Source: Clostridiales bacterium (lineage in GTDB: Bacteria; Bacillota; Clostridia; Oscillospirales; Acutalibacteraceae). From it: a DNA stretch of 34,586 bases. The notes under the pieces are model-generated. The model was not told the DNA's origin. It made no database searches and saw only the letters and a list, made by a program, of their open reading frames with translations. Below, one piece after another: positions 61-34,586 of the stretch. Location of the stretch: the NCBI GenBank assembly GCA_021200555.1, contig JAJQGK010000118.1:1-34586 (forward strand), in the 5' to 3' direction. The position numbers and the translations under genes are program-made. How positions within the stretch are numbered: the first letter of the stretch is position 1; every line of letters starts with the position of its first letter.

Positions 61-70
61 ATCATCTGAA

Positions 71-4125: not shown

Positions 4126-4151
4126 GTCTTGCACCTCGCTTTTTTTCTTTT

Positions 4152-4180: not shown

Positions 4181-4228
4181 GTGTTTTCATAAAATTCATT
4201 GAGAAACGCCGAAAATATTTTCTCATCC

Positions 4229-4257
4229 TTGACATACAGAGTTCATACGGGTAAAAT
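4229..4257 (+). promoter_or_regulatory. promoter TTGACA-N17-TAAAAT
   Basis: TTGACA 4229-4234, TAAAAT 4252-4257, upstream of flavoprotein at 4356. Confidence 0.65.
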
Positions 4258-4355
4258 AATTCAGTAAGAAACCGTATTTGCATATAAATGCTTTATTATA
4301 AAAAAGGCGGGGTATATTCTGCTTTTACTTTACACAGAAAAGGAAATCCTATCTT

Positions 4356-9166: not shown

Positions 9167-9197
9167 TAAAAATTTTATGATATATGAAAAGAGTGGA

Positions 9198-10586: not shown

Positions 10587-10597
10587 GGAGAAGCGTT

Positions 10598-12154: not shown

Positions 12155-12309
12155 AATAATAAAAAGATTGGCATAATGACAGTATTTAAAATTTTGTACA
12201 TATCTTATCTTTTTACATAAAGCCAAATATTACATTCACCAAAAAGACTTTAAATCGGATTTAGATGTAATTGCCAACCTGTCAAGCGCTGCCTTATTTG
12301 TCTATGAAA

Positions 12310-12342
12310 CCTATTGACAAAGTAGGAAATGGGTGTTATACT
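12310..12342 (+). promoter_or_regulatory. promoter TTGACA-N17-TATACT with overlapping CCTA-N9-TAGG candidate operator
   Basis: TTGACA 12314-12319, TATACT 12337-12342; CCTA 12310-12313 and TAGG 12323-12326. Confidence 0.65.
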
Positions 12343-12477
12343 TTTACAGAGAAAAAAGTTTTAAATCGTCATAGTTCATATTAGGGCATGCAAAGCACTC
12401 TCAATTAGGTATGTATTTTAGATATGAAGAATATGTATATCAGATTTAAAGCAATCAGTAGAAAGCAAGGTTATGTA

Positions 12478-13020
12478 ATGAAAACAAAAGCAAAAACCAA
12501 AACTATTATTTTGCCTATAGTTGCGGCGGTAGTTGTGATTGCGGCTGTTTTAGCAATAGTAATACCGAGAACAAGCGGAGATTCAGCCGATGCAGTAAAT
12601 GCCGAAACCACACGGAAATCAGCGCAAAGCGGCACAGATATACCTGTATTCACGGGTAATATTGAGATTAATGAAAGCGAAATTACCGAAACGGCAGCGT
12701 TTTTTGATTACGATGCAGACAGTGCAACTGTAGAGGTGTTTGCGGTCAGAGCTTCGGACGGAACTGTTCGATTGGCACTGAACACCTGCCAAGTATGCAT
12801 GGGTTCGCCATATGCATATTTTGTGCAAAGCGGTGACAGCTTTATATGCCAAAATTGCAACAATTCATTTAATACAGATAATATCGGAATTGAGAAGGGC
12901 GGCTGTAATCCAGTACCGATAACGGCAGAATATTATGAAACCACAAATGGGGTAATAACAATTTCCTCGGATTTTCTTGAAGGATATAAAAATCAGTTTG
13001 CAAATTGGAAAAGCTTTTAG
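12478..13020 (+). CDS. DUF2318-like membrane-anchored protein
   Basis: N-terminal TM segment, CQVCMG..C..C arrangement typical of DUF2318; ATG at 12478 gives a signal-anchor start. Confidence 0.7.
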   Translation: MKTKAKTKTIILPIVAAVVVIAAVLAIVIPRTSGDSADAVNAETTRKSAQSGTDIPVFTGNIEINESEITETAAFFDYDADSATVEVFAVRASDGTVRLALNTCQVCMGSPYAYFVQSGDSFICQNCNNSFNTDNIGIEKGGCNPVPITAEYYETTNGVITISSDFLEGYKNQFANWKSF

Positions 13021-13030
13021 GTGATATGCC

Positions 13031-14311
13031 GTGAAAAAAATATGCCTTAATGTGGAGTCCATGAAATGCGCCGCCTGTGAAACAAGTGTTGAAAACGCTG
13101 TTAAAAAGGTTGACGGAGTAAGCACCGCAAAAGCAAACTGCGAAAAAAACACCTTGATTGTTGAGTTTAATGATCCGGCAAGTGAAGAATTAATAAAAGC
13201 CGCCGTTATCAGGGCGGGTTACGGCATTTCAGACAAACAGAAAAACAATAAAAATTCAATCTATATTCTTGTGATAATATTAGGCTTATATGTTATTGCA
13301 ACGCAATGCGGACTTACGGAGGCCTTCCAAAAATTTCCCACAGTAAGTGAGGAAAAGGTCAGCTATGCGGTTTTGTTTGTTATCGGTCTTTTAACCTCGG
13401 TTCACTGTATCGCAATGTGCTCGGGCATTAATCTGGCTCAAAGCGTCAATTCCTCGGAGAAAAACCCCGTGTTAAAGGGCTTATCGTACAATCTCGGCAG
13501 ACTTACGGGATATACTGTTGTCGGCGGTGTTCTCGGTTTGATAGGAGAAGCGGTTGCCATAACGCTTAAGGTACGAGGAATAATAGGCATAATTGCAGGT
13601 GCATTTATGGTAATAACCGGAGTAAATATGCTTGGCAATTTCGGATTGTTAAAAAGGTTAACGCCAAAAATGCCGAAAGGATTATCGACTGCTATGGCAA
13701 AATTCAGCCGGCACGGTTCTTTTGCGGTGGGCTTGGTAAATGCTTTCATGCCATGCGGTCCTTTACAGTCAATGCAGCTCTATGCAATAGCCTGCGGAGG
13801 TTTTATATCCGGTGCGCTTTCTATGTTCTTTTTCTGCTTAGGTACAATACCGCTGATGTTTACATTCTTCTTAGCGGCCGGAGTTCTAAAGAAAAAAGCG
13901 AGGGATGTTATGCTTAATGTAAGTGCTGTACTCGTTTTTGTATTCGGAATATATATGCTGCAAAACAATTTTGCTCTTACCGGAATATCCCTGCCGTCAA
14001 TATCTCAGTCGTCAAGCGGAAATATAATAACGGCAACGGTAAACGGCGATAAGCAATATATATCATCATCACTTCACTCAAACGGATTTGACGATTTGCA
14101 GGTGGAAGCACATATACCCGTTGTGTGGACTTTAACTGTAGATTCCGATACACTCAACGGATGCAATAATGAAATTGTAATCGCAGAATATAACATACAA
14201 ATAAAATTGCAGGAGGGTGAAAACATAATTGAATTTACGCCGACCGAAGAAGGAACATTCACCTATACCTGCTGGATGGGAATGTTAAAAAATACAATTA
14301 CGGTAGTATAA
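13031..14311 (+). CDS. HMA domain / UreH-DsbD_2-like (TauE/SafE-annotated) membrane domain / cupredoxin-like fusion
   Basis: MKCAAC HMA motif; HCIAMCSG and MPCGPLQ transmembrane motifs; C-terminal beta-rich domain ending TCWMGM. Confidence 0.8.
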   Translation: MKKICLNVESMKCAACETSVENAVKKVDGVSTAKANCEKNTLIVEFNDPASEELIKAAVIRAGYGISDKQKNNKNSIYILVIILGLYVIATQCGLTEAFQKFPTVSEEKVSYAVLFVIGLLTSVHCIAMCSGINLAQSVNSSEKNPVLKGLSYNLGRLTGYTVVGGVLGLIGEAVAITLKVRGIIGIIAGAFMVITGVNMLGNFGLLKRLTPKMPKGLSTAMAKFSRHGSFAVGLVNAFMPCGPLQSMQLYAIACGGFISGALSMFFFCLGTIPLMFTFFLAAGVLKKKARDVMLNVSAVLVFVFGIYMLQNNFALTGISLPSISQSSSGNIITATVNGDKQYISSSLHSNGFDDLQVEAHIPVVWTLTVDSDTLNGCNNEIVIAEYNIQIKLQEGENIIEFTPTEEGTFTYTCWMGMLKNTITVV

Positions 14312-14313
14312 AA

Positions 14314-15429
14314 ATGTTTGTTCTTTCAATAAATTTCAAAACAGCCGATTTGTCTCTTCGCGAGGCGTTTTCGTTTGATAATAAAAAAACGGCTGCTCTT
14401 TTTAAAATATTAAAATTAAATCAAACAGAAGCCTGTGTATATCTTTCCACCTGTAACAGGTGCGAAATTTACGGCAGCGGAGACCCATATAAGGCGCTGT
14501 CGGTTTTTTGCAAATTTGCGGGTGCAGATGAATATACCGTTAAAAGCCATATTTTAATTTACAATAGTAAGAGAGCAATTAATCACCTTTTTCGGGTATG
14601 CTGCGGGTTTGAATCCATGGTCTGCGGAGAGGATGAGATACTCGGTCAAATCAAAAAGGCCTTTGAGTTTTCGCAAAAAATTTCCTTCACAAATTATGAG
14701 ATTAACGAAAGCTTTAAATGTGCAATAACCTGCGCAAAAAAGGTGAAGACAAACACTCTGATTTCAAAAAGCTCCGTGTCCGTTGCAACTATTGCTGCGG
14801 GCGTTTGCCATAAATTTTCGGCAGACAACAAAACGGTTATGCTGATAGGTGCAGGTGGTGAAATCGGGGGTAAGGTTTTGAAAAATCTGCTTTCATACGA
14901 TGACTTTACGATTCTTGTTACATCCCGCAATATCAGTAAAAAGGAAAATCCAAAATCAAACCTGAAGTATATTGAATACAGCAAGAGATATAGTTATGTT
15001 GATGAAGCCGACATTGTAATTTCAGCAACCAAAAGCCCGCATTTTACGATTTTGTATGATAATTTGAAAAGCTGCATCAAAACCGATAAAAACCGTTTAT
15101 TTATTGACCTTGCGGTACCAAGAGATATAGATGATGAGATAAAGAAAATTACCGGCTTAACACTGACGCAAATTGATGATTTTAATAAGATTGCCGAAAA
15201 TAACAGTGAAATTAAAGTTAATGAAATGCAATTTGCCAATGATATTATCGCCGAATACGAGGATGAGCTTTTGAAGACACTGGAGTTTCACAAGCTTGTT
15301 CCCACAATTAATTCAATAAAAGATCTTGAAATTCGCAATTTTATATATAATTTCAGAGATTGCGCAACTGCAAATGAGCTTGAAAGCTTTATTACAGTGC
15401 TTGAAAAAATGCAAAAAAATGACAGTTAA
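14314..15429 (+). CDS. hemA: glutamyl-tRNA reductase
   Basis: STCNRCEIYG, CGFESMVCGEDEILGQIKKAF. Confidence 0.93.
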   Translation: MFVLSINFKTADLSLREAFSFDNKKTAALFKILKLNQTEACVYLSTCNRCEIYGSGDPYKALSVFCKFAGADEYTVKSHILIYNSKRAINHLFRVCCGFESMVCGEDEILGQIKKAFEFSQKISFTNYEINESFKCAITCAKKVKTNTLISKSSVSVATIAAGVCHKFSADNKTVMLIGAGGEIGGKVLKNLLSYDDFTILVTSRNISKKENPKSNLKYIEYSKRYSYVDEADIVISATKSPHFTILYDNLKSCIKTDKNRLFIDLAVPRDIDDEIKKITGLTLTQIDDFNKIAENNSEIKVNEMQFANDIIAEYEDELLKTLEFHKLVPTINSIKDLEIRNFIYNFRDCATANELESFITVLEKMQKNDS

Positions 15430-15447
15430 TGGAAGGCGGAGTGGCTG

Positions 15448-15990
15448 ATGACTTTGTTTCCGTTTTTTGAGGATATAGAAAACAAAAGCTTCTTAATAGT
15501 AGGTGGGGGAAAGGTCGCAAAAGAAAAAAAAGACAAGCTCAGTTTATTTACAGATAAAATTACTGTCGTGGCAGAAAACACGGAGCTTACCGGCGTTCAT
15601 GTTATAAAAAGAAAATTCAAAGAGTCGGATATCGATGCTGCCGATGTTGTGATATGCGCAAGTGACGATAACGAGTTAAATTCACATATTGCAGCGCTTT
15701 GCCGCAAAAAAAATATTCCCGTAAATGTTGCAGACAATCCGTCTCTCTGCACATTTATATTCCCTGCTCTGATAAAGCAAGGAGATTTGACTGTAGGAAT
15801 TGCAACGGCGGGTAAAAGCCCCGTTTATTCTGCATACATAAAAAAGGAATTTGAAAAAGTAATACCGGATAATACCGAAAAAATTATAGATGAACTTTGG
15901 CTTTTAAAAAATCAGCTTAAATATACGGTGCCCAAACAAAGTGAACGGGCAAAAATACTGAAAAAAAAGTTATCGGAGCTATTTTTATGA
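15448..15990 (+). CDS. precorrin-2 dehydrogenase / sirohydrochlorin ferrochelatase (Met8/CysG N-terminal type)
   Basis: FLIVGGGKVAKEKKDKL, NVADNPSLCTFIFPALIKQGDLTVGIATAGKSP. Confidence 0.9.
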   Translation: MTLFPFFEDIENKSFLIVGGGKVAKEKKDKLSLFTDKITVVAENTELTGVHVIKRKFKESDIDAADVVICASDDNELNSHIAALCRKKNIPVNVADNPSLCTFIFPALIKQGDLTVGIATAGKSPVYSAYIKKEFEKVIPDNTEKIIDELWLLKNQLKYTVPKQSERAKILKKKLSELFL

Positions 15991-16844
15991 CAAACATCAT
16001 TATAGCAACTCGTTCAAGCCGTCTTGCGATGGTTCAAACTCAAATAATTAAAGATTCAATAGAAAGTCAAGGAGTCGGCGTAACTGTTGAAAAGGTTCAA
16101 ACCAAGGGGGATAAAGACAGAAAAAGTCCGATAAATGAAATCGGAGGCAGAGGTCTTTTTGTAAGAGATATTGAAGAATACCTGATTGACGACAGGGCTG
16201 ACATTGCCGTACACAGCGGTAAGGATTTGCCTTATACGCTTGCAAGCGGTCTTATTGTTGCGGGAATACCTAAAGCGGCAGCCGGCGAGGATTGCTTGAT
16301 TTACAGAAAAGACATAACTCTTGAAAATGGCATTCTCATAGGAACCGGAAGTCCGAGAAGAATAGCAGAGTGCAAGAAATTTTTTCCAAATGCAAAATAT
16401 GAAAGTATTAGGGGCAATGTTGATACCAGACTTGAAAAATTAAAAAAAGGACAATATGATGCAATCATTCTTGCAAAAGCAGGTCTTGACAGAATGAATG
16501 TCGATTTGTCCGAATTTAATGTAAAGGTGTTTGATACGAGCGAATTTATACCGTCTGCCTGCCAAGGAATAATCGCCGCAGAGTGCAGAGAAAACGACAG
16601 CGAAATTGTTGAGCTTTTGCACAGCATTAGCGATGATATTTCAGCAAAGAGATTTGAAGCAGAGAGATATATGTTTTCCCTAATGCAGGCAGATTGCAGT
16701 GTTCCGCTTGGCGTTCATTCAAAAATTGACGGAGAAAACATAGAAATATCGGCGATGTACTGCGGCAAAAGGTCTGTTAAATCGGGAGCCTTTGAAAATT
16801 ACAAATTGCTTTGCCGTGAAATTAAGGATGAAATATATGGATAA
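15987..16844 (+). CDS. hemC: hydroxymethylbilane synthase
   Basis: ATRSSRLAMVQT, GTGSPRR, VPLGVHSKI. Confidence 0.93.
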   Translation: MTNIIIATRSSRLAMVQTQIIKDSIESQGVGVTVEKVQTKGDKDRKSPINEIGGRGLFVRDIEEYLIDDRADIAVHSGKDLPYTLASGLIVAGIPKAAAGEDCLIYRKDITLENGILIGTGSPRRIAECKKFFPNAKYESIRGNVDTRLEKLKKGQYDAIILAKAGLDRMNVDLSEFNVKVFDTSEFIPSACQGIIAAECRENDSEIVELLHSISDDISAKRFEAERYMFSLMQADCSVPLGVHSKIDGENIEISAMYCGKRSVKSGAFENYKLLCREIKDEIYG

Positions 16845-18303
16845 AGGAACCGTTACGATTGTAGGAGCAGGCTGCTCAAAGGAATTGATAACCGTCAGCG
16901 GTCTTGAAAAATTAAGAAATGCTGATGTCGTGGTCTATGATGATCTGATTGATGACGATTTGTTGCTTGAAGTAAAAAGCACGGCGGAAAAAATATATGT
17001 TGGGAAAAGATATAAAAATCACAGCAAAAATCAACAAGAAATTAACCGCATACTAATTAAAAAGGCAAAGGAAAATAAGAATGTGGTTCGATTAAAAGGC
17101 GGAGACAGCTTTGTTTTCGGAAGAGGCTCAGAGGAAATCATTGCTCTTGAAAAAGAAAATATCCCTTACCAAACCGTTGGCGGTGTAACCTCCGCTGTTG
17201 CCGTGCCTGAGCATTTCGGCATACCTGTAACATACCGCAGCGTTGCTAAATCATTTACGGTGGTAACAGGAAGCTCGGCGGATGAAAGCACTGAAAATTA
17301 TGCAGCCCTCGCAAAGCTTGACGGCACGCTGGTTTTTCTTATGGCTTTACACGATATTGATGAAATATGCGCTGCTCTAATCAGAAACGGAAAGGACAAA
17401 AACACTCCCTGTTCCCTGCTTTCAAGAGGATATTGTCCGGATGAAAAAAGAATTGACGGTTCTTTAAGCAATATCTCCGACAAGGTAAAAGACGCAAAAA
17501 CTCCGGCAATTTTCGTTGTCGGTACAGTATCGTCAATGCACCTTTGCAGAAATGATTTTCTGCCGTTAAGCGGTGCAAGCGTAACCGTTACAGGAAGTAA
17601 AAATTTTTCTTCAAAGCTGTGTAAAGAACTAAATTCTTTAGGTGCGTATACACAAAACAAAGCGAATTTAAAAATTGTTCCGCTTACAAAAAATATTCCA
17701 ACTGATTTTTCAAAATACACCTGTGCCGCTTTTACAAGCGCAAACGGAGTAAAGCTTTTTTTCAGCTTCTTAAAGGAAAAGAAAATTGATTTACGAAATC
17801 TTTTTAATTTAAAATTCGCCTGTATCGGAGTTCAATGCGCAAAAGAGCTTTCAAAGAACGGATTCTATGCGGATTTGATACCCGAAAAATTTACAGTCAA
17901 AGCAATGGGAAATCAGCTTGCAGCGGAGCTTTCTCATGATGACAGAGTTTTGATTTTACGCTCGGCAAAAGGCTCTGATGATTTACTTGTTTATTTGAAA
18001 AACGCAAATATAATGTTTGATGATGTTCATATTTACACAACCGAACCAATGTCGGAAAAAACTAATGTGAATACGGATTATATTACATTTTCAAGCGCCG
18101 ACGGTATTCGTGCCTTCTTTGAAAACGGTTCAAGGATTAATAATGCGCAGCCGGTTTGCATTGGCGAAATTACGGCAAAGCAATTAAGAAAATATACCGA
18201 TATAATTCCCATTGTTGCAAAAGAGCAAACAGCAAACGGTATTGTAACGGCAATTAAGGAGGACAGACTTAATGAAAAGATTCAGAAAATTGAGACAGAA
18301 TGA
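16837..18303 (+). CDS. uroporphyrinogen-III C-methyltransferase / uroporphyrinogen-III synthase fusion (CobA-HemD)
   Basis: N-terminal SUMT motifs (VGAGCSKELITVSGLEKL, VRLKGGDSFVFGRGSEE), C-terminal HemD-like domain. Confidence 0.9.
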   Translation: MDKGTVTIVGAGCSKELITVSGLEKLRNADVVVYDDLIDDDLLLEVKSTAEKIYVGKRYKNHSKNQQEINRILIKKAKENKNVVRLKGGDSFVFGRGSEEIIALEKENIPYQTVGGVTSAVAVPEHFGIPVTYRSVAKSFTVVTGSSADESTENYAALAKLDGTLVFLMALHDIDEICAALIRNGKDKNTPCSLLSRGYCPDEKRIDGSLSNISDKVKDAKTPAIFVVGTVSSMHLCRNDFLPLSGASVTVTGSKNFSSKLCKELNSLGAYTQNKANLKIVPLTKNIPTDFSKYTCAAFTSANGVKLFFSFLKEKKIDLRNLFNLKFACIGVQCAKELSKNGFYADLIPEKFTVKAMGNQLAAELSHDDRVLILRSAKGSDDLLVYLKNANIMFDDVHIYTTEPMSEKTNVNTDYITFSSADGIRAFFENGSRINNAQPVCIGEITAKQLRKYTDIIPIVAKEQTANGIVTAIKEDRLNEKIQKIETE

Positions 18304-19234
18304 AAAAATGCGTTCTTTTGTGCGTGAAAACAAAATAAGTACAGATGATTTAATATACCCTATTTTCGTCAAGGACGGAGAAAGCATTAAGGAGCCTATC
18401 GAATCAATGCCCGGTATTTTTCGATACAGCATTGACATGCTTGATGAAATATTAAATGAAATTATCACAAATAAAATTCAATCGATTCTCATCTTTGGCA
18501 TACCGTCAAAAAAGGATGAAAAGGGAAGCGGTGCATATGACGAAAACGGAGTCACCCAAAAAGCCATAGGACATATAAAAAAGAAATACCCAAACATTTT
18601 AATTATAGCCGATGTTTGTCTTTGCGAATATACTTCTCACGGTCATTGCGGAATTGTAAAAAACGGTGAAATTTTAAATGATGAAACCCTGCCGTTTCTG
18701 TCCAAAACCGCAGTTTCTCTCGCAGAAGCAGGTGCCGATATTATTGCGCCGTCGGATATGATGGATGGCAGAGTTGAAGTTATTAGAGACGCTCTTGATG
18801 AAAACGGTTTTATTAATATTCCTATTATGAGCTACAGTGCAAAATTCGCTTCCGCATATTACGGTCCGTTTCGTGAAGCGGCGGGGTCGTCTCCTTGTTT
18901 CGGCGACAGAAAATCATATCAAATGGATCCCGCAAACGGCAGAGAAGCAATGGCGGAAATAAAGCAGGATTTAGCAGAGGGTGCCGACATGATTATTATT
19001 AAGCCCTCACTTGCCTACGGTGACATTTTATTATCCGCAAGAAAAGAATGTGAAGTGCCTTTAATTGCGTACAATGTCAGCGGAGAATATGCAATGGTAA
19101 AATTTGCAGCCGAAAAGGGATTTATAAATGAAAAACAAATCGTTCTTGAAAACATGCTGTCGCTAAAGCGTGCGGGTGCAGACAGAATTATCACCTATCA
19201 CGCACTTGATATTGCGAGGTGGCTAAATGAATAA
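18272..19234 (+). CDS. hemB: porphobilinogen synthase (delta-aminolevulinic acid dehydratase)
   Basis: DVCLCEYTSHGHCG, ADIIAPSDMMDGRV, GADMIIIKPSLAY. Confidence 0.95.
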   Translation: MKRFRKLRQNEKMRSFVRENKISTDDLIYPIFVKDGESIKEPIESMPGIFRYSIDMLDEILNEIITNKIQSILIFGIPSKKDEKGSGAYDENGVTQKAIGHIKKKYPNILIIADVCLCEYTSHGHCGIVKNGEILNDETLPFLSKTAVSLAEAGADIIAPSDMMDGRVEVIRDALDENGFINIPIMSYSAKFASAYYGPFREAAGSSPCFGDRKSYQMDPANGREAMAEIKQDLAEGADMIIIKPSLAYGDILLSARKECEVPLIAYNVSGEYAMVKFAAEKGFINEKQIVLENMLSLKRAGADRIITYHALDIARWLNE

Positions 19235-20492
19235 TACCAAATCAGAGAAGTATTTTGAAAAAGCACAGAAATACATACCGGGAGGAGTAAACAGTCCCGT
19301 TCGTGCATTTCGCTGTGTAACCGGAAATCCTCTTTTTATCAAGCGGGCAAACGGCGCATATATTTACGATGAAGACGACAACGAATTTGTTGATTATGTT
19401 TGCAGCTGGGGACCCTGCATTTTGGGGCATGCAGACCGCAGGATTATCGATGTCGTTAAGGCCGAGTGTGAAAACGGTCTGACGTTCGGTGCTCCCACTG
19501 CGAAGGAAACAGAGCTTGCCGAAATGATTTGCAACGCAATCCCCTGCGCTGAGCAGGTTCGGCTTGTTTCAAGCGGTACGGAAGCGGTTATGAGTGCAAT
19601 TCGTCTTGCAAGAGGTTACACCGGAAAAAATAAAATAATAAAATTCAAAGGAAACTATCACGGTCACAGTGACGGCTTGCTTGTAAAGGCAGGAAGCGGA
19701 TTGCTTACCGAAAGTGTTGCGGACAGCTCAGGTGTACCCGAGGGATATGTCAAAAATACGCTTCTTGCCGATTATAATGATGAAAAATCCGTGGAGCGTA
19801 TATTCAAAAATAACGACGATATAGCGGCTCTTATTGTTGAACCTGTTGCCGCTAATATGGGAGTAATTCCGCCTAAAAAAAGCTTTCTCAGGTTTTTGAG
19901 AGATATTTGTGCGAAAAACAATACTATTTTGATTTTTGATGAGGTTATAACAGGCTTCCGTTTATCCTACGGCGGAGCAGGAGAATATTACGGGGTAATG
20001 CCCGATTTGGTGACGCTCGGCAAAATTGTAGGCGGAGGAATGCCGCTTGCCGCATATGCCGGAAGAGCTGATATTATGCAGTGCGTTGCTCCCGTCGGAA
20101 ATGTATATCAGGCGGGTACCTTGTCGGGCAATCCGATTGCGGTAACGGCAGGTATTCAAACATTGAAAATATTAAGGGAAAATCCCGACATTTACAACAA
20201 ACTTGATAAAAACGGCGCAGTGCTTGAAAATGTGTACAAGGAAAAGGGAATCAATGCAAATCGAGTCGGCTCGCTTTTGAGCGTATTCTTTACGGAAGAT
20301 GAGGTTACAGATTACAGCAGTGCGGTAAAATCCGACCAAAATACTTTTCGCAAATACTTTTATCAAATGCTTGAAAACGGTATATACATTGCACCAAGCC
20401 CATTCGAAGCAATGTTTATCTCGGTCTGCCATGAAGAAAAGGAAATAGAAAAAACCGTCTCGACCATCAGACATCTAAAGGGTATCATTTAA
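19227..20492 (+). CDS. hemL: glutamate-1-semialdehyde 2,1-aminomutase
   Basis: PGGVNSPVRAF, YHGHSDGLLVKAGSG, TLGKIVGGGMP. Confidence 0.95.
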   Translation: MNNTKSEKYFEKAQKYIPGGVNSPVRAFRCVTGNPLFIKRANGAYIYDEDDNEFVDYVCSWGPCILGHADRRIIDVVKAECENGLTFGAPTAKETELAEMICNAIPCAEQVRLVSSGTEAVMSAIRLARGYTGKNKIIKFKGNYHGHSDGLLVKAGSGLLTESVADSSGVPEGYVKNTLLADYNDEKSVERIFKNNDDIAALIVEPVAANMGVIPPKKSFLRFLRDICAKNNTILIFDEVITGFRLSYGGAGEYYGVMPDLVTLGKIVGGGMPLAAYAGRADIMQCVAPVGNVYQAGTLSGNPIAVTAGIQTLKILRENPDIYNKLDKNGAVLENVYKEKGINANRVGSLLSVFFTEDEVTDYSSAVKSDQNTFRKYFYQMLENGIYIAPSPFEAMFISVCHEEKEIEKTVSTIRHLKGII

Positions 20493-20620: not shown

Positions 20621-22300
20621 ATGGATCATGAAAAACTTAAAACGGATATTTTGATTATCGGCGGCGGTACAGCAGGCTGTTTTGCCGCAATTACAGCATC
20701 GGAGCTGTCGCTGGACACAAAAATAATCATTGCCGAAAAAGCCAATATCAAGCGAAGCGGCTGCCTTGCGGCAGGCGTAAACGCATTAAACGCCTATATT
20801 GCAAAAGGTCATACTCCCGATTTTTATGTTGACTATGCGGTATCAGACGCTCACGGTATCGCACGAGAGGATCTGCTTTTATCCATGAGCGAACGCCTTA
20901 ATGAGGTTACAAAAAAATTAGAAACGCTCGGACTTGTAATACTTAAAGATGAAAACGGCGAATATGTTTGCAGAGGCAACAGAAATATAAAAATTAACGG
21001 TGAAAACATCAAGCCGATTTTGGCAAATGCAGTAAAAAGACTCAGCAATGTAACTGTAGTAAATAATCTTAATATAGTTGATTATATTACCGACGGAAAC
21101 AGAATTGTCGGTGCTTGGGGCAACAGTGTCAATGAGGAAAAGCTTTATTTCATTTCCGCAAAAGAATCCATAATATGCACCGGCGGTGCGGCTGGACTTT
21201 ACAAACCGAATAATCCCGGCTTTTCACGGCATAAAATGTGGTACTGTCCTTTCAACACGGGAGCGGGATACGCTATGGGAATACGAGCCGGTGCGGAAAT
21301 GACAACATTTGAAATGCGTTTCATTGCGCTCAGATGCAAGAATACTATAGCACCGACAGGAACCATTGCTCAAGGAGTAGGCGCAAAACAGATAAATTCA
21401 CTTGGCGAAAAATACGAAAGCAAGTACGGACTCAGCACTTCTCAAAGACTTTGGGGTACTGTTGAAGAAAATAAATCCGGCAGAGGACCATGCTATTTAA
21501 AAACTGATTCAATTACCGCCGAGCAAGCAGAAGATTTAGAAAAAGCATATTTGAATATGGCACCGTCGCAAACGCTCAAATGGGTTTCATCCGGAAAAAG
21601 AGCAGACAGCGAAAATGTGGAAATAGAGGGTACGGAGCCGTATATAGTCGGAGGTCATACAGCAAGCGGTTATTGGGTTGATAATAATCGAAAAACCACG
21701 CTTGAAGGCTTGTATGCGGCAGGAGATGTCGCAGGAGGCTGCCCTCAAAAATATGTCACAGGTGCACTTGCCGAGGGAGAAATTACCGCAAAGGCAGCAT
21801 TAAAGGAATTGGACAGATTTGATAATTTTCAAATTTCCAACCGGTTTATTGATAAAATTACACTTGAAGCAGATCGGCGTTTTTCTTCTGCAAACACCGA
21901 AACCGCAGATGCAGTTGAGGCAAAAATGCAAGATATTATGGACACTTATGCAGGCGGAATAAAAACCAATTATTCCTATACACAGGAATCACTTGCTGTT
22001 GCAGAGAAAAAGATAAAAGAGCTGGAACAGGAGCTTGATAAAGTTCTTTGCAGTAATATGAGAGAACTTACTCATTTTTTTGAGGTGCGTGAACGGCTTA
22101 CCGTATGTCTTGTTTTGATTGCTCACCTTTGCGCAAGGAGAGAAACAAGGTGGCACTGCTTTGCGGAAAATCTCTCCTTCCCCGACAAGGATGATGAACA
22201 CTTTCTGAAATACATAAATTCAAGGCTTGAAAACGGAGAAATAAAAATAATCGAGCGGCAGCTTGCAAAAAGGTATGGCAAATATGAGTATCAGAATTAA
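20621..22300 (+). CDS. aprA: adenylylsulfate reductase alpha subunit-like flavoprotein
   Basis: IIGGGTAGCFAA FAD motif, RSGCLAAGVNALN, FEMRFIALRCKNTIAPTGTIAQG, GLYAAGDVAGG. Confidence 0.87.
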   Translation: MDHEKLKTDILIIGGGTAGCFAAITASELSLDTKIIIAEKANIKRSGCLAAGVNALNAYIAKGHTPDFYVDYAVSDAHGIAREDLLLSMSERLNEVTKKLETLGLVILKDENGEYVCRGNRNIKINGENIKPILANAVKRLSNVTVVNNLNIVDYITDGNRIVGAWGNSVNEEKLYFISAKESIICTGGAAGLYKPNNPGFSRHKMWYCPFNTGAGYAMGIRAGAEMTTFEMRFIALRCKNTIAPTGTIAQGVGAKQINSLGEKYESKYGLSTSQRLWGTVEENKSGRGPCYLKTDSITAEQAEDLEKAYLNMAPSQTLKWVSSGKRADSENVEIEGTEPYIVGGHTASGYWVDNNRKTTLEGLYAAGDVAGGCPQKYVTGALAEGEITAKAALKELDRFDNFQISNRFIDKITLEADRRFSSANTETADAVEAKMQDIMDTYAGGIKTNYSYTQESLAVAEKKIKELEQELDKVLCSNMRELTHFFEVRERLTVCLVLIAHLCARRETRWHCFAENLSFPDKDDEHFLKYINSRLENGEIKIIERQLAKRYGKYEYQN

Positions 22301-22601
22301 TGAGAACAAATGTGTATCTTGCCAAAGGTGCAGCGAGGTCTGTCCCGGAGGATTGATAGATATAAATGCAAAAACAGGAAAAGCGCAAATATTGTATCCC
22401 GAGGATTGCTGGGGATGTACATCCTGCTTAAAAGAATGTAGCACCGGAGCAATTGAATTTTTCTTGGGACCTGATATAGGTAATGAAAAGGTTTATATGC
22501 AGGTCGAAAAGAAGGGTTCCTTGCTCAACTGGAAATTTTATGATGAAAACGGTCTTATAAGAACGATTACCGTTGACAGTCAAAGTTCCAATAAATATTG
22601 A
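22284..22601 (+). CDS. aprB: adenylylsulfate reductase beta subunit-like 2[4Fe-4S] ferredoxin
   Basis: [14 protein letters not shown] and [16 protein letters not shown]; overlaps aprA stop; ATG at 22284 or 22275. Confidence 0.87.
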
Positions 22602-22615
22602 AAGGTATCAAAATT

Positions 22616-23518
22616 ATGAGTAAATTAACCCATCTTGATGAGCTTGAAGCGGAAGCGATATACATAATGAGAGAAGTGGCGTCAGAATGCGAAAAGCCGG
22701 TTATGCTTTATTCAATCGGCAAGGATTCCTCGGTAATGCTTCATCTTGCAATGAAAGCATTTTATCCGCAAAAGCCTCCATTTCCGTTTTTACATGTAAA
22801 CACAACATGGAAGTTTAAGGAAATGATAGAGTTTCGGGACAAAACCGCAAAAGAGTTAGGCATAGAAATGCTTGAATACATCAATGAGGATGGAGTTAAA
22901 AAAGGCATAAATCCGTTTGATAACGGCGCAGCGTATACGGATATAATGAAAACTCAGGCGCTTAAGCAGGCCCTCAATAAGTACGGCTTTACAGCGGCAT
23001 TCGGCGGCGGAAGACGGGATGAAGAAAAAAGCAGAGCCAAGGAACGAATTTTCTCTTTCAGAAATTCTGCTCAGGCATGGGATCCCAAAAATCAGCGTCC
23101 CGAAATGTGGAAGCTCTATAATACGGAAATCAAAAAGGGCGAGAGCATCAGAGTATTTCCAATCTCCAACTGGACAGAAACGGATATATGGCAATACATA
23201 AAAAGAGAAAACATACCGATAGTTCCCCTCTATTTTGCTGCGGTTCGTCCGGTTGTTAAGCGTGACGGAAAACTGATTATGGTGGACGACGACAGAATGA
23301 GGCTTAATCCCGGCGAAAAGCCTATGATGAAAAGCGTGCGCTTCAGAACGCTCGGCTGTTATCCCCTTTCCGGCGGTATTGAATCAACCGCAACAACACT
23401 TGATGAAATTATTGAGGAAACGCTTTCATCTGTCGAAAGCGAAAGGACAAGCCGAATAATAGACAATGACGGAGGTTCTGCAAGCATGGAAAAAAGAAAG
23501 AGAGAAGGATATTTTTAA
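22616..23518 (+). CDS. cysD: sulfate adenylyltransferase subunit 2
   Basis: [51 protein letters not shown]. Confidence 0.93.
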
Positions 23519-26660: not shown

Positions 26661-26685
26661 CAATAAACGATAAGGAGTGAGTAAT

Positions 26686-27546
26686 TTGACAATTGACTAT
26701 TCAGCACTTAAAGCCGGGGGATTTATGCGGCAAAAGCAGAAAAATACTTTTTCCCTTAGACTCCGTGTGGTAGGCGGAACAGTTACCTCAGAGCAACTAA
26801 AAGCCATTCAAGCTGTTGCTGATAAATACGGACACGGCTACATTCATCTGACTTCCAGACAGGGAATTGAAATTCCGTTTATAAAGCTTGAAGATATTGA
26901 TGAGGTTAAGGTGCAACTTGCAAAAGGCGGTGTTGTCCCCGGAGTTTGCGGGCCGAGAGTAAGAACGGTCACTGCTTGTCAAGGCGGGCGATGTTGCCCG
27001 AGCGGATGTATAGACGCACTTGAAATTGCCGAAGAACTCGATTCAAGATATTTCGGAAGAGAGCTTCCCCACAAGTTTAAATTCGGCGTTACCGGATGTC
27101 AAAATAATTGCCTTAAAGCAGAAGAAAATGATTTTGGTGTTAAAGGCGGAATGATTATAAATTGGGATAAAGCCTCGTGTATTTTTTGCGGCGTTTGTGA
27201 TAAAGCTTGCCGAAACGGTGCAATTACGATTCAAGACGGTAAAATAACTGTTGATGATGAAAAATGTAACAACTGCGGAAGATGCGTTACAGCTTGTCCT
27301 ACAGAAAGCTGGCAAGGAAAAAGCGGCTACATAGTTTCTTTAGGCGGCACTTTCGGCAACGATATTGAAAAAGGCAGAGAGCTTTTACCTATCATTCCGG
27401 ATAAAACTACATTATTCAGAGTAGCTGACACAGCAATCGATTTCTTTGCCGACAATGCAAATCCGTCGGAACGCTTTGCAAAAACCATCGACAGAGTTGG
27501 ATGGGATAAATTAGAAGAAAAAGTTTTGGAGGCATATAATGGATGA
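26686..27546 (+). CDS. compact siroheme/[4Fe-4S] sulfite reductase with ferredoxin domain
   Basis: Siroheme-cluster ligands CQGGRCC and CQNNC; CIFCGVCDKAC and CNNCGRCVTACP ferredoxin motifs; TTG start 26686 with aaggag. Confidence 0.87.
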   Translation: MTIDYSALKAGGFMRQKQKNTFSLRLRVVGGTVTSEQLKAIQAVADKYGHGYIHLTSRQGIEIPFIKLEDIDEVKVQLAKGGVVPGVCGPRVRTVTACQGGRCCPSGCIDALEIAEELDSRYFGRELPHKFKFGVTGCQNNCLKAEENDFGVKGGMIINWDKASCIFCGVCDKACRNGAITIQDGKITVDDEKCNNCGRCVTACPTESWQGKSGYIVSLGGTFGNDIEKGRELLPIIPDKTTLFRVADTAIDFFADNANPSERFAKTIDRVGWDKLEEKVLEAYNG

Positions 27547-28112: not shown

Positions 28113-28116
28113 TGTT

Positions 28117-28323
28117 ATGACTATTACAGTATCAGGCAAAAAGAAAGAATATCCACAGGGATTAACAGTAAAGCAACTTATTGATGCAGAAGATGTAGAA
28201 AGTCCGCTTTATGTTACCGTTACAATAAATGATGATTTTGTAAAATCTGATGAGATTGAAACAAAAGTAATCAATGATGGAGACGTGATAGAGTTTCTTT
28301 ACTTTATGGGCGGTGGCTGCTGA
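28117..28323 (+). CDS. ThiS/MoaD-like sulfur carrier protein (HcyS-like), C-terminus GGGC
   Basis: 68-aa beta-grasp-like protein ending MGGGC; next to MoeB-like, JAMM, MetY genes. Confidence 0.83.
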   Translation: MTITVSGKKKEYPQGLTVKQLIDAEDVESPLYVTVTINDDFVKSDEIETKVINDGDVIEFLYFMGGGC

Positions 28324-29126
28324 TGGCTTTTACAAATGAACAGCTTGAAAGGTACTCAAGACATATTATACTCAAAGAAATCGGCGTAAAAGGTCAAAAA
28401 AAACTTCTTAATGCTAAAGTTCTTATTATTGGAGCAGGCGGACTCGGTGCACCTGCGGCGCTGTATCTTGCTGCGGCGGGCGTCGGAACAATAGGTATTG
28501 CAGATGCCGATGAAGTTGATTTATCAAATCTTCAAAGGCAGGTTATTCACACAACCGCCGATTTAGGCAAAGCAAAGGTGGAATCTGCAAAGGAGACGAT
28601 GCAGGCAATAAATCCCGATGTAAATGTAGTTACATATCACGAATTTATAGCGGCGGACAATATTGCCGATATTATAAAGGATTATGATTTTATTCTTGAC
28701 GGTACCGATAATTTTCCGGCAAAATTTTTAATAAACGATGCGTGTGTTATGGCGAAAAAGCCCTTTTCTCACGCAGGAATAATTCGCTTTCAGGGACAGC
28801 TTATGACCTATGTTCCGGGAGAAGGTCCCTGCTACAGATGCGTATTTAAAAATCCGCCTCCGCCTGATGCCGTACCTACTTGCAAGCAAGCCGGAGTAAT
28901 CGGTGCAATGGCAGGGGTTATCGGCTGCCTTCAGGCAATGGAAGCAATTAAATATATTACCGGCGCAGGCGATTTGCTTACGGGTTATCTTTTAACCTAT
29001 GATGCTCTTAAAATGGAGTTCAGAAAAATCAAGCTGCCGAAAGACAATTGCTGTGCCGTATGCTCGGATAACCCTACAATTACAACGCTTATAGATTATG
29101 AACAAACAGAGTGCAGCGGAGTATAA
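28323..29126 (+). CDS. ThiF/MoeB-like E1 adenylyltransferase (HcyF-like)
   Basis: GAGGLGAPAALYLAAAGVG, CYRC..CAVC zinc ligands, no rhodanese domain. Confidence 0.88.
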   Translation: MAFTNEQLERYSRHIILKEIGVKGQKKLLNAKVLIIGAGGLGAPAALYLAAAGVGTIGIADADEVDLSNLQRQVIHTTADLGKAKVESAKETMQAINPDVNVVTYHEFIAADNIADIIKDYDFILDGTDNFPAKFLINDACVMAKKPFSHAGIIRFQGQLMTYVPGEGPCYRCVFKNPPPPDAVPTCKQAGVIGAMAGVIGCLQAMEAIKYITGAGDLLTGYLLTYDALKMEFRKIKLPKDNCCAVCSDNPTITTLIDYEQTECSGV

Positions 29127-29129
29127 AAA

Positions 29130-29540
29130 ATGATTAAATTATCTTTATCTGATTATAATGCAATTGTCAGCCATGCCCGTGATAATTTGCCGAATGAAGC
29201 GTGCGGACTGTTTGGCGGAATTATTTGCGGCGGTTCAAAGGAAGTCAAAAAGGTTTATATGATGACAAATATTGATGCAAGCCCCGAGCATTTTTCAATG
29301 AACCCGGAAGAGCAATTGGCGGCTGTCAAAGATATGCGTAAAAACGGTTATGTTCCTCTCGGCAATTGGCACAGTCATCCGGAATCACCGTCCAGACCAA
29401 GCGAGGAAGACAAGCGTCTTGCATACGATAAAACGGCAAGTTACATGATTTTATCACTTATGGACAAGGAAAATCCCGTTCTTAACTCATTTGAAATATC
29501 CGCAGTGCAAAGCAAAAAGGAAGAATTGGAGATTAAGTAA
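29130..29540 (+). CDS. JAMM/Mov34 M67-family metallopeptidase (HcyD/Mec+-like)
   Basis: NEACGLFGG and HSHPESPSRPSEED JAMM motif. Confidence 0.9.
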   Translation: MIKLSLSDYNAIVSHARDNLPNEACGLFGGIICGGSKEVKKVYMMTNIDASPEHFSMNPEEQLAAVKDMRKNGYVPLGNWHSHPESPSRPSEEDKRLAYDKTASYMILSLMDKENPVLNSFEISAVQSKKEELEIK

Positions 29541-30487: not shown

Positions 30488-31249
30488 ATGCTTAATCAAT
30501 TTTCAAGGACTCAACTTCTTTTCGGCAGTGAAGCTATGCAAAGGCTTGCCGAAAGCTCTGTTGCGGTTTTCGGTATAGGCGGAGTCGGCAGTTATACTGC
30601 GGAGGCGTTGGTCAGAAGCGGCGTGGGGACACTGGATTTAATAGACGACGATAAAATATGCTTGACTAATTTAAACCGTCAGGTTTTTGCCACTCGAAAA
30701 ACAGTCGGGCAATATAAGGTGGACTGTGCGGAGCAGCGCCTGCTTGAAATTAACCCTAATATTAAAATTAATAAATATAAAAAATTTTATCTTCCGGAAA
30801 ATCAGGATGAATTTGATTTCACTCAGTATGATTACATCGTAGACGCAATAGACACCGTATCGGGCAAAATTGCTCTTGCTGTGAATGCCCAAGAAGCAAA
30901 TACTCCCATCATCAGCTCAATGGGTGCCGGCAATAAGCTTGACCCAACCGCATTTGAAGTTGCCGACATTTATGACACTTCTGTTTGCCCTCTTGCAAAG
31001 GTAATGCGCAGAGAGCTTAAAAAACATGGAGTAAAAAGCTTGAAGGTTGTTTATTCAAAGGAGCCTGCTCTAACGCCTTGCGATGATATGTCGATAAGCT
31101 GCAAGAATAATTGTATCTGTCCGCCCGGCACTGCAAGGAAATGCACCCAAAGACGGCAGGTTCCGGGCAGCAACGCATTTGTTCCGCCGACGGTAGGATT
31201 GATCATCGCCGGTGAGGTAATAAAAGATATTGCGTTAAATCGTTTATGA
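30488..31249 (+). CDS. tcdA: tRNA threonylcarbamoyladenosine dehydratase (ThiF/E1-like)
   Basis: FSRTQLLFG, GIGGVGSYTAEALVRSGVG, SSMGAGNKLDPTAFEVADI. Confidence 0.9.
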   Translation: MLNQFSRTQLLFGSEAMQRLAESSVAVFGIGGVGSYTAEALVRSGVGTLDLIDDDKICLTNLNRQVFATRKTVGQYKVDCAEQRLLEINPNIKINKYKKFYLPENQDEFDFTQYDYIVDAIDTVSGKIALAVNAQEANTPIISSMGAGNKLDPTAFEVADIYDTSVCPLAKVMRRELKKHGVKSLKVVYSKEPALTPCDDMSISCKNNCICPPGTARKCTQRRQVPGSNAFVPPTVGLIIAGEVIKDIALNRL

Positions 31250-31297
31250 TGTTCATATTCACATAAGCAAGCCATTTTTTTAAGAGGTTGTCACTTT

Positions 31298-32623
31298 ATG
31301 AAACAAACAAACATAATATTTTATTTTACAGATCAGCAGCGATGGGATACCGTAAATGAAGCCGTAATGCCCAATGTTTGTTCACTTGCCGAGGAAGGTG
31401 TTTGGTTTGAAAACAACTTCACCTGCCAGCCGGTGTGCGGACCTGCCAGAGCCTGCCTACAGACCGGTGTTTACGCCACACAGTGCGGCTGTTATTGGAA
31501 CGGCATAGCACTCCCCAATGACAGACCAAGTCTTGCGCACTATTTTAACAATGCAGGCTATCAGACCGCATATATAGGCAAGTGGCATTTAGCATCTGAC
31601 AGGCTGCCGAATATCGGACTTCACTGTGAAAAAACCGCCATTCCGAAGGATCGTTTAGGTGAATACCAGTATTTCCGAGGTGCAGATGTACTTGAATTTA
31701 CATCCCACGGATATGACGGCTATGTCTTTGACGAAAACGGTAACAGACTTGATTTCAAAGGATACAGAGCAGACTGCATTAATGATTATGCCCTGGAGTA
31801 TTTGGACAATTACGACAGGAGCAAGCCGTTTTTTATGTTTGTAAGCCAGCTTGAACCGCATCACCAAAACGATAGACACACATACGAGGGATATAAGCCG
31901 ACGATTGAAAAGTTTAAAGATTATCCGATTCCGCCTGATCTGTCTTTTTTGCAAGGCGATTACAACGAAATGTACCCGGATTATATTTCCGCAATCAACA
32001 GAATTGACTATAATATAGGCAAGCTTGTCAATAAGCTCAAGGAGCTTGACATTTACGACAACACCGTAATTGTCTTTACGAGCGATCACGGCAGTCACTT
32101 CAAAACGAGAAATCCGGAATATAAGCGTTCCTGCCACGAAAGCTCAACGCATACTCCCCTAATAATAAAGGGCGGCGTGTTTAACGGAGGCAAAAGAGAA
32201 AAGAGGCTGTCGTCGCTTATTGATTTGCCGCCTACCCTGCTTTCCCTTGCAGGCATTCCCATACCAAATTCATATATGGGCGTTGATTTGGCACGACAAA
32301 GGGATAATACCGAGAATAAACGTGACTGCGTATTTATTCAGATAAGCGAAGCGTCAAATTCACGAGCGATAAGAACCGAAAGATATAAATATGAGGTGCG
32401 TGACGCCGCATTAACAGGCTATGCTCATCATAAATCTCGTGTTTATTTTGAAAATTATCTTTACGACTTGGAAAAAGATCCAAACGAAAAGAATAATTTA
32501 ATCAAGAACAGCAAATATTCTTCTGTTCGTCGTGAAATGAAAAAAATCCTGCTCGAACAAATGGAGCTTGCACAGGAAAAAAAACCTGTGATATTGCCCG
32601 CAGTTACAACAAGGAGAAAGTAA
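31298..32623 (+). CDS. type I sulfatase (alkaline phosphatase superfamily), no obvious signal peptide
   Basis: CGPARACLQTG formylglycine motif, YFTDQQRWD, FTSDHGSHF, GKWHL. Confidence 0.92.
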   Translation: MKQTNIIFYFTDQQRWDTVNEAVMPNVCSLAEEGVWFENNFTCQPVCGPARACLQTGVYATQCGCYWNGIALPNDRPSLAHYFNNAGYQTAYIGKWHLASDRLPNIGLHCEKTAIPKDRLGEYQYFRGADVLEFTSHGYDGYVFDENGNRLDFKGYRADCINDYALEYLDNYDRSKPFFMFVSQLEPHHQNDRHTYEGYKPTIEKFKDYPIPPDLSFLQGDYNEMYPDYISAINRIDYNIGKLVNKLKELDIYDNTVIVFTSDHGSHFKTRNPEYKRSCHESSTHTPLIIKGGVFNGGKREKRLSSLIDLPPTLLSLAGIPIPNSYMGVDLARQRDNTENKRDCVFIQISEASNSRAIRTERYKYEVRDAALTGYAHHKSRVYFENYLYDLEKDPNEKNNLIKNSKYSSVRREMKKILLEQMELAQEKKPVILPAVTTRRK

Positions 32624-34173
32624 TGAGCAGCAAAAAAGCTAATCAAAAGAAATATTTGACACTCAAAGAACGTGCTTGCTTCACGGTCGGTGCGTTTGGA
32701 AGATCGGGCATCTATACACTGATGTCAATGTTTACATTGGTGTTTTTCCAAAATGGTGCCGGTTTAACTCTCAGTCAGGGTACAACGATTATCTTAATCG
32801 GCAGAGTTTTCGATGCAATCAACGACCCGGTTATGGGTATGATTGTTGACAGAACAAAATCGAAATGGGGCAAAATGAGGCCTTATTTGCTTTTTGCTCC
32901 CGTGCCTATTGCAATTTGCACAATTTTGCTGTTCACCGCTCCGTTTGAACAGGGTTCGACAGCTGCTTTTGTATGGGCACTTGTTACATATATTTTATGG
33001 GGTGTTGCCTTTACCGTTCAGGATGTTCCGTTTTGGGGGCTTTCATCCGTCATCACGCCTCTGGAAAGTGAGAGAACATCGTTTATCTCAACCGCACGTT
33101 TAGGCTCAACATTCGGCAGTATATTGCCGGCTCTTCTTGTTCCGATTTTATATCAAAGCAACTTGGGGTATACAACAGGTTTTTTCATCAGCAGTGTTAT
33201 TTTCGCATTTCTCGGCTGCGGACTTTCAATCCTGATTTTCTTTGTCTCCAAAGAGAGAGTACCAAAAACAGATAACACGCCGTCATTTAAGGAAACCTTT
33301 GCGGTTTTGCACAAGGATAAGCTTCTAATCATTGTAATATTCGCCGGCGTTTTAGGCTCTACAATGGTTACGGCAAACCAGTGCGCAGACTATATAGGCA
33401 ATTATCTTGTTATCCAAAACTTCACGGATTTTAGCCAAATATTTGATTTATCCGGTAATTTGTTGAGCAATGCAGACGCTGCAGCGGCATATGATTTTTG
33501 GATTCCAAGGGGAACTATAGTAACAACTCTCACAGTTGCAATCGGTGTCGGGATGGTTCCGGCTATGGCAATTTTCCCTATGCTCAGGAAAAAGCTTTCT
33601 TTAAAACAGATTTATATCGGCTCTGCAATTTTCGGCCTCGTTGTGCATGTTTTATGCTATGTTGTAATCAGTGCGGATATTACCAATTTCAGCATTTATA
33701 TGCTTTGGGTATTTCTTTTCCTGATGGGATTACCGCTCGGCATTTACAATGTAATCACATATGCTCTTATTGCTGACTCAGTTGATTATCTTGAATGGAA
33801 AACAGGAGAGAGACACGAGGGCGTTTGTTTTTCATTTCAAACCTTCCTTTCAAAGGTAAATGCTGCAATAGCTACTTTCGTTTTCGGTCAGCTTCTTGAT
33901 GCCACTGATTTTAAAGCAGTTGACAAATCCCTTGTTGATGTTGAGGGCAGACAGATATTCTTTCAGCAGTCGATTGAAACTCAAAAGGTATTGCTTGCAC
34001 TTGTCACAATTGTGCCTGCGATCGGCTTTCTGCTTACTATAATTCCGATGTTCTTCAATGAATATACCGGAAAGACAAAGGAAGAGGCTCAAATCCAGCT
34101 TGAAGAAGCGAGAGATAAAAAAATAAAAATTGAGAATCAAGCAACCGCCGACGGGGTTATTCGATTAAAATAA
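32623..34173 (+). CDS. glycoside-pentoside-hexuronide (GPH) family MFS symporter
   Basis: FDAINDPVMGMIVDRTKSKWGKMRPYLL, multi-TM, YALIADSVDYLEWKTGERHEG. Confidence 0.92.
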   Translation: MSSKKANQKKYLTLKERACFTVGAFGRSGIYTLMSMFTLVFFQNGAGLTLSQGTTIILIGRVFDAINDPVMGMIVDRTKSKWGKMRPYLLFAPVPIAICTILLFTAPFEQGSTAAFVWALVTYILWGVAFTVQDVPFWGLSSVITPLESERTSFISTARLGSTFGSILPALLVPILYQSNLGYTTGFFISSVIFAFLGCGLSILIFFVSKERVPKTDNTPSFKETFAVLHKDKLLIIVIFAGVLGSTMVTANQCADYIGNYLVIQNFTDFSQIFDLSGNLLSNADAAAAYDFWIPRGTIVTTLTVAIGVGMVPAMAIFPMLRKKLSLKQIYIGSAIFGLVVHVLCYVVISADITNFSIYMLWVFLFLMGLPLGIYNVITYALIADSVDYLEWKTGERHEGVCFSFQTFLSKVNAAIATFVFGQLLDATDFKAVDKSLVDVEGRQIFFQQSIETQKVLLALVTIVPAIGFLLTIIPMFFNEYTGKTKEEAQIQLEEARDKKIKIENQATADGVIRLK

Positions 34174-34176: not shown

Positions 34177-34205
34177 TTGACAAGTCAGGAAAAAATGATT
34201 ATAAT
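34177..34205 (+). promoter_or_regulatory. consensus promoter TTGACA-N17-TATAAT upstream of the terminal repeats
   Basis: TTGACA 34177-34182, TATAAT 34200-34205, no convincing ORF downstream. Confidence 0.6.
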
Positions 34206-34251: not shown

Positions 34252-34451
34252 AGCCAAGAACCGCAAGAGGGCGGACAAAGCATTCTTAGATGGCACTTGT
34301 TTTTTAAATATTTTTTTATTATCGGGGTGTAGTGCAGTTGGAAGCGCGCCTGCTTTGGGCAACACATCCGAACGCCGCCGGTGGCGGATGAAGTGAGGAT
34401 TTGTTGGCGCAGCGGTCGGCGATTGGCAAGGCAATCCTTTGCCGCAGACAG
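34252..34451 (+). repeat. tandem repeat unit 1 with tRNA-Pro(UGG)-like 5' half (34323-34359)
   Basis: AGCCxxGAACCGCAAGAGGGCGGACAAAGCATTCT... recurs about 200 bp later; CGGGGTGTAGTGCAGTTGGAAGCGCGCCTGCTTTGGG is a tRNA-Pro 5' half. Confidence 0.75.
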
Positions 34452-34586
34452 AGCCGGGAACCGCAAGAGGGCGGACAAAGCATTCTCGGATAGTTCTCGT
34501 TTTTTACATTTTGATATTTTCGGGGTGTAGCGCAGTTGGAAGCGCGCCTGCTTTGGGCAACACATCCGAACGCCGCCGGTGGCGGA
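34452..34586 (+). repeat. tandem repeat unit 2 (cut by window end) with tRNA-Pro-like 5' half (34521-34557)
   Basis: Near-identical to unit 1 including CAACACATCCGAACGCCGCCGGTGGCGGA. Confidence 0.75.

What the first reader, a model, noticed from the sequence alone, without database searches (positions are those of the whole stretch)
31298..34173. Cytosolic-type sulfatase plus GPH symporter as possible sulfate source
The sulfatase has the Cys-type formylglycine motif (CGPAR) but no evident signal peptide, and is followed by a sugar symporter. No sulfate permease was seen in the window. Only 48 bp separate tcdA and the sulfatase, with no clear terminator. Inference: imported sulfated sugars are desulfated inside and the sulfate feeds CysDN/AprAB, linking host glycan sulfate to methionine synthesis.
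Basis: inference. Interest (0 to 1): 0.65.

Follow-up and report, generated by a model that had tools for sequence, protein, structure and literature searches.

The report
Sulfated-sugar uptake and desulfation gene pair
Two adjacent genes of an uncultured Clostridia genome look able to import a sulfated sugar and strip off its sulfate inside the cell, mainly to eat the sugar; they lie beside the sulfate-assimilation genes only in this lineage, so a dedicated supply of sulfur to methionine synthesis is possible but not shown.

Summary
At 31298-32623 is a complete type I sulfatase (441 aa; Cys-type motif CGPAR, Cys47 invariant in 38 aligned sequences) with no signal peptide. Its stop overlaps the start of a GPH-family sugar symporter (32623-34173). 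The gap to tcdA is 48 bp, without a terminator-like site. Elsewhere the genome has a formylglycine-maturase gene, and no SulP, DASS, PHO4/CysP or CysT/CysW sulfate transporter. A TauE/SafE-family protein and an unassigned NitT/TauT-type ABC importer remain candidates.

Import followed by cytosolic desulfation is a sound inference. A dedicated feed to CysDN/AprAB is not supported. Sulfatase orthologues occur in 42 of 300 family genomes and AprA in 12; 2 have both, as chance predicts. None of 37 orthologue neighbourhoods and none of 80 apr loci shows the pairing. Relatives have TauE/SafE-sulfatase-GPH or sulfatase-GPH-anSME-beta-galactosidase operons, which points to sugar catabolism with sulfate efflux, as proposed for a pneumococcal PTS-sulfatase-TauE operon. 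The tcdA/sulfatase junction looks like a recent rearrangement.

Against dismissal: apr genomes lacking CysT/CysW tend to carry sulfatase machinery, and in another genus an alkyl sulfatase directly precedes aprA.

The parts
31298..32623 (+). type I (formylglycine, Cys-type) sulfatase, 441 aa, no signal peptide
31436..31450 (+). formylglycine motif CGPAR (residues 47-51)
   Evidence: sequence; Cys47 invariant in 38 aligned sequences
32623..34173 (+). GPH-family sugar:cation symporter, 516 aa, start overlaps the sulfatase stop by one base
31250..31297 (+). 48-bp gap between tcdA and the sulfatase, no terminator-like site; junction specific to this lineage
30488..31249 (+). TcdA-like ThiF-family protein, last gene of the cluster shared with G149
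   Evidence: TcdA model 161.8 bits, below its cut-off of 304
20621..22300 (+). AprA, adenylyl-sulfate reductase subunit alpha
   Evidence: NF005331 894 bits
22263..22601 (+). AprB, ferredoxin-like subunit (true start probably inside this ORF)
   Evidence: position and conservation beside AprA
22598..23518 (+). CysD, ATP sulfurylase small subunit
   Evidence: TIGR02039 480.9 bits
23518..25206 (+). CysN, ATP sulfurylase large subunit
   Evidence: TIGR02034 529.3 bits
25220..26560 (+). MetY-like O-acetylhomoserine sulfhydrylase
   Evidence: TIGR01326 434.3 bits, below its cut-off of 495.1
26677..27546 (+). sulfite reductase-like protein with ferredoxin domain
28116..28322 (+). small ThiS-like sulfur-carrier protein ending GGGC
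   Evidence: translation; near-identical protein in L170
28323..29126 (+). ThiF/MoeB-like adenylyltransferase
29130..29540 (+). JAB/JAMM peptidase
   Evidence: PF14464 83.2 bits

Best explanation
The sulfatase and the GPH symporter are a small sugar-catabolic module. The symporter brings in a sulfated mono- or disaccharide. A maturase encoded elsewhere converts Cys47 to formylglycine, and the sulfatase removes the sulfate in the cytosol so that the sugar can enter central metabolism. In relatives the sulfate probably leaves through a TauE/SafE-family exporter encoded next to the sulfatase; in this genome a TSUP gene lies elsewhere (C85). The module came to lie behind the apr-met-tcdA cluster by a rearrangement in this lineage. 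Released sulfate may also be used by CysDN/AprAB, but as a by-product rather than as the module's purpose. Shown: gene content, motif, lack of a signal peptide, maturase gene, neighbourhoods, phyletic patterns. Inferred: substrate class, direction of transport, fate of sulfate.
For: Overlapping sulfatase and GPH genes. GPH directly downstream of the orthologue in 5 of 37 neighbourhoods. TauE/SafE directly upstream in 8 of 37, among them G021 and G149, the two genomes that form a supported clade with the window sulfatase (100/97). TauE/SafE, sulfatase and GPH all together in G021, G034 and G142. Sulfatase-GPH-anSME-beta-galactosidase in G177 with spacings of 3, -4 and 9 bases. Alpha-L-fucosidase 14 bases upstream in G251, and arabinofuranosidase-type genes directly upstream in three related genomes. 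anSME in 36 of 37 sulfatase genomes against 3 of 25 others (p about 1e-12). 40 of 42 sulfatase genomes have no AprA. A second GPH-sulfatase pair in the same genome at C135. Precedent: the pneumococcal PTS-sulfatase-modifying enzyme-TauE operon, read by its authors as uptake of sulfated sugars and efflux of the sulfur product (PMC3302838).
Against: No substrate and no direction of transport is shown. Some TSUP proteins import rather than export (general knowledge). The window has no TSUP gene beside the sulfatase, and the one in the genome is only 36-39% identical to the sulfatase-linked ones. The apr pathway of this genome needs a sulfate source, and none of the classical permeases was found.
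Confidence: 0.62

Rival explanations
1. One reading: the module is a sulfur-scavenging device. Desulfation of imported sugars is the cell's sulfate source for CysDN/AprAB and methionine synthesis, and the genes are read with the apr cluster.
For: 48-bp gap without terminator; all genes from FtrD to GPH on one strand. No SulP, DASS, PHO4/CysP or CysT/CysW, whereas 7 of 12 apr genomes of the family have CysT/CysW. Among apr genomes, anSME is seen in 4 of 5 without CysT/CysW and 0 of 7 with it (p=0.010; at genus level 3 of 4 against 0 of 5, p=0.048). In G220 an alkyl sulfatase lies 8 bases before aprA, with a divergent anSME and type I sulfatase beyond it, and in G285 an anSME-like gene is divergent from aprA, 55 bases away.
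Against: Sulfatase and aprA do not co-occur beyond chance. The linkage is absent in the sister genome G149 and in 80 apr loci. TauE/SafE sits beside orthologues. The complementary pattern rests on few genera and may only reflect two clades with different gene content. A TSUP protein and a NitT/TauT-type importer could supply sulfate.
Confidence: 0.25
2. The sulfatase acts on something other than a sulfated sugar (an aryl or choline sulfate, a sulfamate, or a phosphonate or phosphate ester), and the GPH protein carries an unsulfated sugar or glycoside.
For: The superfamily is promiscuous, and no curated sulfatase equivalog is reached (best 154 bits against a cut-off of 481). Closest solved structures are only weakly similar.
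Against: The best solved match is an N-acetylglucosamine-6-sulfatase (2.5e-42), and orthologues neighbour glycosidases and sugar symporters.
Confidence: 0.13

Closest known systems
Streptococcus pneumoniae PTS-sulfatase-sulfatase modifying enzyme-TauE operon, SPH1922-SPH1929 (PMC3302838; PMC3283741)
   Same: sugar importer, sulfatase, maturase and TauE-family exporter; read by the authors as uptake of sulfated sugars with efflux of the sulfur product
   Different: PTS instead of GPH; maturase and exporter are linked there but unlinked in the window genome; no sulfatase activity could be detected in the pneumococcal assay (PMC3283741)
Bifidobacterium breve UCC2003 genes Bbr_0851-0853 (PMC6045583)
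   Same: transporter, sulfatase-family gene and atsB maturase listed together under sulfated-sugar metabolism; the strain grows on GlcNAc-6-sulfate
   Different: maturase adjacent; transporter annotated as glucose/fructose transport protein; no apr cluster described there
BT4656 N-acetylglucosamine-6-sulfatase (PDB 5g2v)
   Same: closest solved sequence; same catalytic domain
   Different: has about 26 residues ahead of the catalytic domain that the window protein lacks; similarity too weak to transfer the substrate
Clostridial aprAB-cysDN assimilation clusters with Sbp-CysTWA (for example L195, L199)
   Same: AprA, AprB, CysD, CysN, MetY-like, sulfite reductase, Trx, ThiF and JAMM genes in one neighbourhood
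   Different: no CysTWA here; hem genes upstream and a sulfatase-GPH module downstream

Membership tests
type I formylglycine sulfatase (PF00884) | catalytic domain over the curated cut-off | tested here: met
   160.9 bits against 25
type I formylglycine sulfatase (PF00884) | Cys- or Ser-type formylglycine motif with metal and catalytic residues | tested here: met
   CGPAR with D12, Q13, K95, H97, D263, H264 conserved in orthologues
type I formylglycine sulfatase (PF00884) | a maturase available in the genome | tested here: met
   C90:17862-18911, TIGR03942 342.6 bits, slightly under the 349.45 cut-off, directly behind a membrane-anchored sulfatase
type I formylglycine sulfatase (PF00884) | hydrolysis of a sulfate ester | not testable with these tools
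   needs an enzyme assay
GPH cation symporter (TIGR00792) | over the family cut-off | tested here: met
   249.6 bits against 231.35
GPH cation symporter (TIGR00792) | transport of a sulfated sugar | not testable with these tools
   needs a transport assay
import, cytosolic desulfation and TauE efflux module (pneumococcal type) | importer gene next to the sulfatase | tested here: met
   genes overlap by one base
import, cytosolic desulfation and TauE efflux module (pneumococcal type) | sulfatase without export signal | tested here: met
import, cytosolic desulfation and TauE efflux module (pneumococcal type) | TauE/SafE gene in the same operon | tested here: not met
   not beside the window sulfatase; directly upstream in 8 of 37 orthologues; an unlinked TSUP at C85
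sulfatase dedicated to apr-type sulfur assimilation | co-occurrence or conserved linkage with aprA | tested here: not met
   2 of 300 have both, 1.7 expected; no linkage in 37 sulfatase and 80 apr loci
sulfatase dedicated to apr-type sulfur assimilation | induction by sulfur limitation | not testable with these tools
   needs expression data

The most novel reading that the evidence does not exclude
In Clostridia that have aprAB-cysDN but no CysTWA, hydrolysis of organosulfates inside the cell is the main sulfate supply. It arose at least twice: the sulfatase-GPH module behind the apr cluster in the window lineage, and the alkyl sulfatase, type I sulfatase and anSME around aprA in genus g128.
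Probability: 0.2. Interest if true: 0.6.

Novelty: new variant of a known kind. Interest (0 to 1): 0.38.

Why it matters
Sulfated host and dietary glycans are usually described as being desulfated outside the cell or in the periplasm. A GPH-coupled cytosolic sulfatase, with a TauE/SafE partner in relatives, would be a widespread way for uncultured Clostridia to use sulfated sugars and would decide whether they release sulfate that others can reduce. If the sulfate is kept instead, host glycan sulfate would be a direct sulfur source for methionine synthesis in cells without a sulfate permease.

Tried and rejected
2. A conserved sulfatase-apr operon: rejected, no example in 37 sulfatase and 80 apr loci. 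3. Significant co-occurrence of sulfatase and AprA: rejected, p=0.68. 4. A terminator or RNA structure between tcdA and the sulfatase: none found. 5. Foreign base composition of the module: not seen, GC 0.41-0.43 against 0.36-0.45 for the cluster, leaving out Trx at 0.315. 6. The C141 NitT/TauT-type importer as kin of the one beside CysN in G250: only 23% permease identity, undecided. 7. Literature for a GPH-sulfatase operon: nothing relevant. 8. Literature for alkyl sulfatase with APS reductase as sulfur source: no paper. 9. Structure prediction was not run: sequence comparison already placed the fold, and a model would not settle the substrate.

Full report
What is there. The two ORFs are exactly as described: a 441-aa type I sulfatase at 31298-32623 and a 516-aa GPH symporter at 32623-34173, overlapping by one base. 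The motif CGPAR is residues 47-51. Cys47 and the usual metal and catalytic residues are conserved through 38 aligned sequences. The protein starts at the catalytic domain: residue 2 aligns with residue 27 of BT4656, and at most 16 codons could be added upstream, so it is very probably cytosolic. The gap to tcdA is 48 bp, with no terminator-like site and no unusual fold.

The rest of the genome. The window is the first 34,586 bases of a 61,797-base contig of a 2.23-Mb draft genome (97.25% complete, 143 contigs). It has three PF00884 proteins: this one; one on C135 directly behind another GPH gene; and a 674-aa membrane-anchored one on C90 followed by an anSME-type maturase. SulP, DASS and PHO4/CysP are absent. 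Only five BPD_transp_1 proteins were found and none is CysT or CysW. Remaining candidates for sulfate movement are a TSUP protein at C85 and a NitT/TauT-type importer beside an FNT channel at C141. The anSME score lies slightly under the curated cut-off, as for most relatives.

Does the sulfatase belong to the apr cluster? Among 300 genomes of the family, orthologues (45% identity or more) occur in 42 and AprA in 12; only G000 and G149 have both, against 1.7 expected. In G149 the aprA-to-tcdA cluster is collinear with the window (50-93% identity) and ends at tcdA, while its sulfatase is on another contig behind a TauE/SafE gene. In the sister species L170 (AprA 89%) the cluster ends after trxB with no tcdA or sulfatase. 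None of 80 named apr loci has a sulfatase, anSME or alkyl sulfatase in the stretch fetched, while about half have CysT/CysW and a few have SsuBC-like genes. The tree puts the window sulfatase in a supported clade with G021 and G149, both of which have TauE/SafE upstream. The simplest history is a TauE/SafE-sulfatase(-GPH) ancestor, with the sulfatase-GPH pair moved behind tcdA in the window lineage (inference).

What the module does. In relatives the sulfatase is flanked by TauE/SafE upstream (8 of 37) and GPH downstream (5 of 37); G021, G034 and G142 have all three. G177 has sulfatase-GPH-anSME-beta-galactosidase, tightly packed. Others have a fucosidase or arabinofuranosidases next door. anSME is present in 36 of 37 sulfatase genomes and 3 of 25 others. 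This is the profile of a sulfated-sugar catabolic module. The same logic was published for a pneumococcal operon with a PTS in place of GPH (PMC3302838), and B. breve lists a transporter, a sulfatase-family gene and atsB together under sulfated-sugar metabolism (PMC6045583). [quoted passage not shown] The direction for these proteins is not shown.

Seven of 12 apr genomes have CysT/CysW; the two that also have the sulfatase do not. Among apr genomes, anSME is found in four of the five without CysT/CysW and in none of the seven with it (p=0.010; 0.048 by genus). G220 was not in the anSME search, and its anSME was read from the Pfam domains and the position of the gene. In genus g128 the link is physical: in G220 an alkyl sulfatase lies 8 bases before aprA, with a divergent anSME and a CVPSR-type sulfatase beyond it; in G285 an anSME-like gene is divergent from aprA, 55 bases away. 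These are few genera, and the pattern could be clade history. It makes sulfur scavenging a live minority hypothesis, and free sulfate in the cytosol would be open to CysDN in any case.

Verdict. Observation confirmed; import and cytosolic desulfation likely; a dedicated link to methionine synthesis unproven and not favoured by comparative data. The module is a GPH-type variant of a known kind of sulfated-sugar system.

Noticed in passing
L125 (G220:C57) 3-5034: Alkyl sulfatase (PF14863/PF14864) 8 bases before aprA, with a divergent anSME and type I sulfatase (CVPSR) beyond it: an organosulfatase-apr neighbourhood in another genus.
   Followed up: partly
L123 (G285:C21) 12211-15118: anSME-like radical SAM gene divergent from aprA with a 55-base gap.
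   Followed up: partly
28116-29540: ThiS-like carrier ending in GGGC, ThiF/MoeB-like enzyme and JAMM peptidase beside the MetY-like gene: looks like a protein-thiocarboxylate sulfur-transfer cassette for homocysteine (comparison from memory); the extra C-terminal Cys would need trimming.
   Followed up: no
34325-34586 and L015 4330-4781: Two copies of a tRNA-Pro 5' half, each with the same unrelated tail, followed by a 100-N scaffold gap and then an intact tRNA-Pro(TGG). Either a tRNA-derived repeat or an assembly artefact.
   Followed up: partly
34177-34205: Perfect sigma-70 consensus (TTGACA-17-TATAAT) just after the GPH gene, ahead of the tRNA-Pro repeats.
   Followed up: no
L018 (G000:C135) 237-3093: Second GPH-sulfatase pair in the same genome, 10 bases apart, with motif CAPYR.
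   Followed up: partly
L020 (G000:C141) 7670-11708: NitT/TauT-type ABC importer, FNT channel and what looks like a CRP-type regulator together; substrate unknown, could be sulfur or nitrogen anions.
   Followed up: partly
12424-20492: Haem-biosynthesis operon (hemA, cysG-like, hemC, hemD/cobA, hemB, hemL) directly upstream of aprA; kept in L169, L170 and G250.
   Followed up: partly
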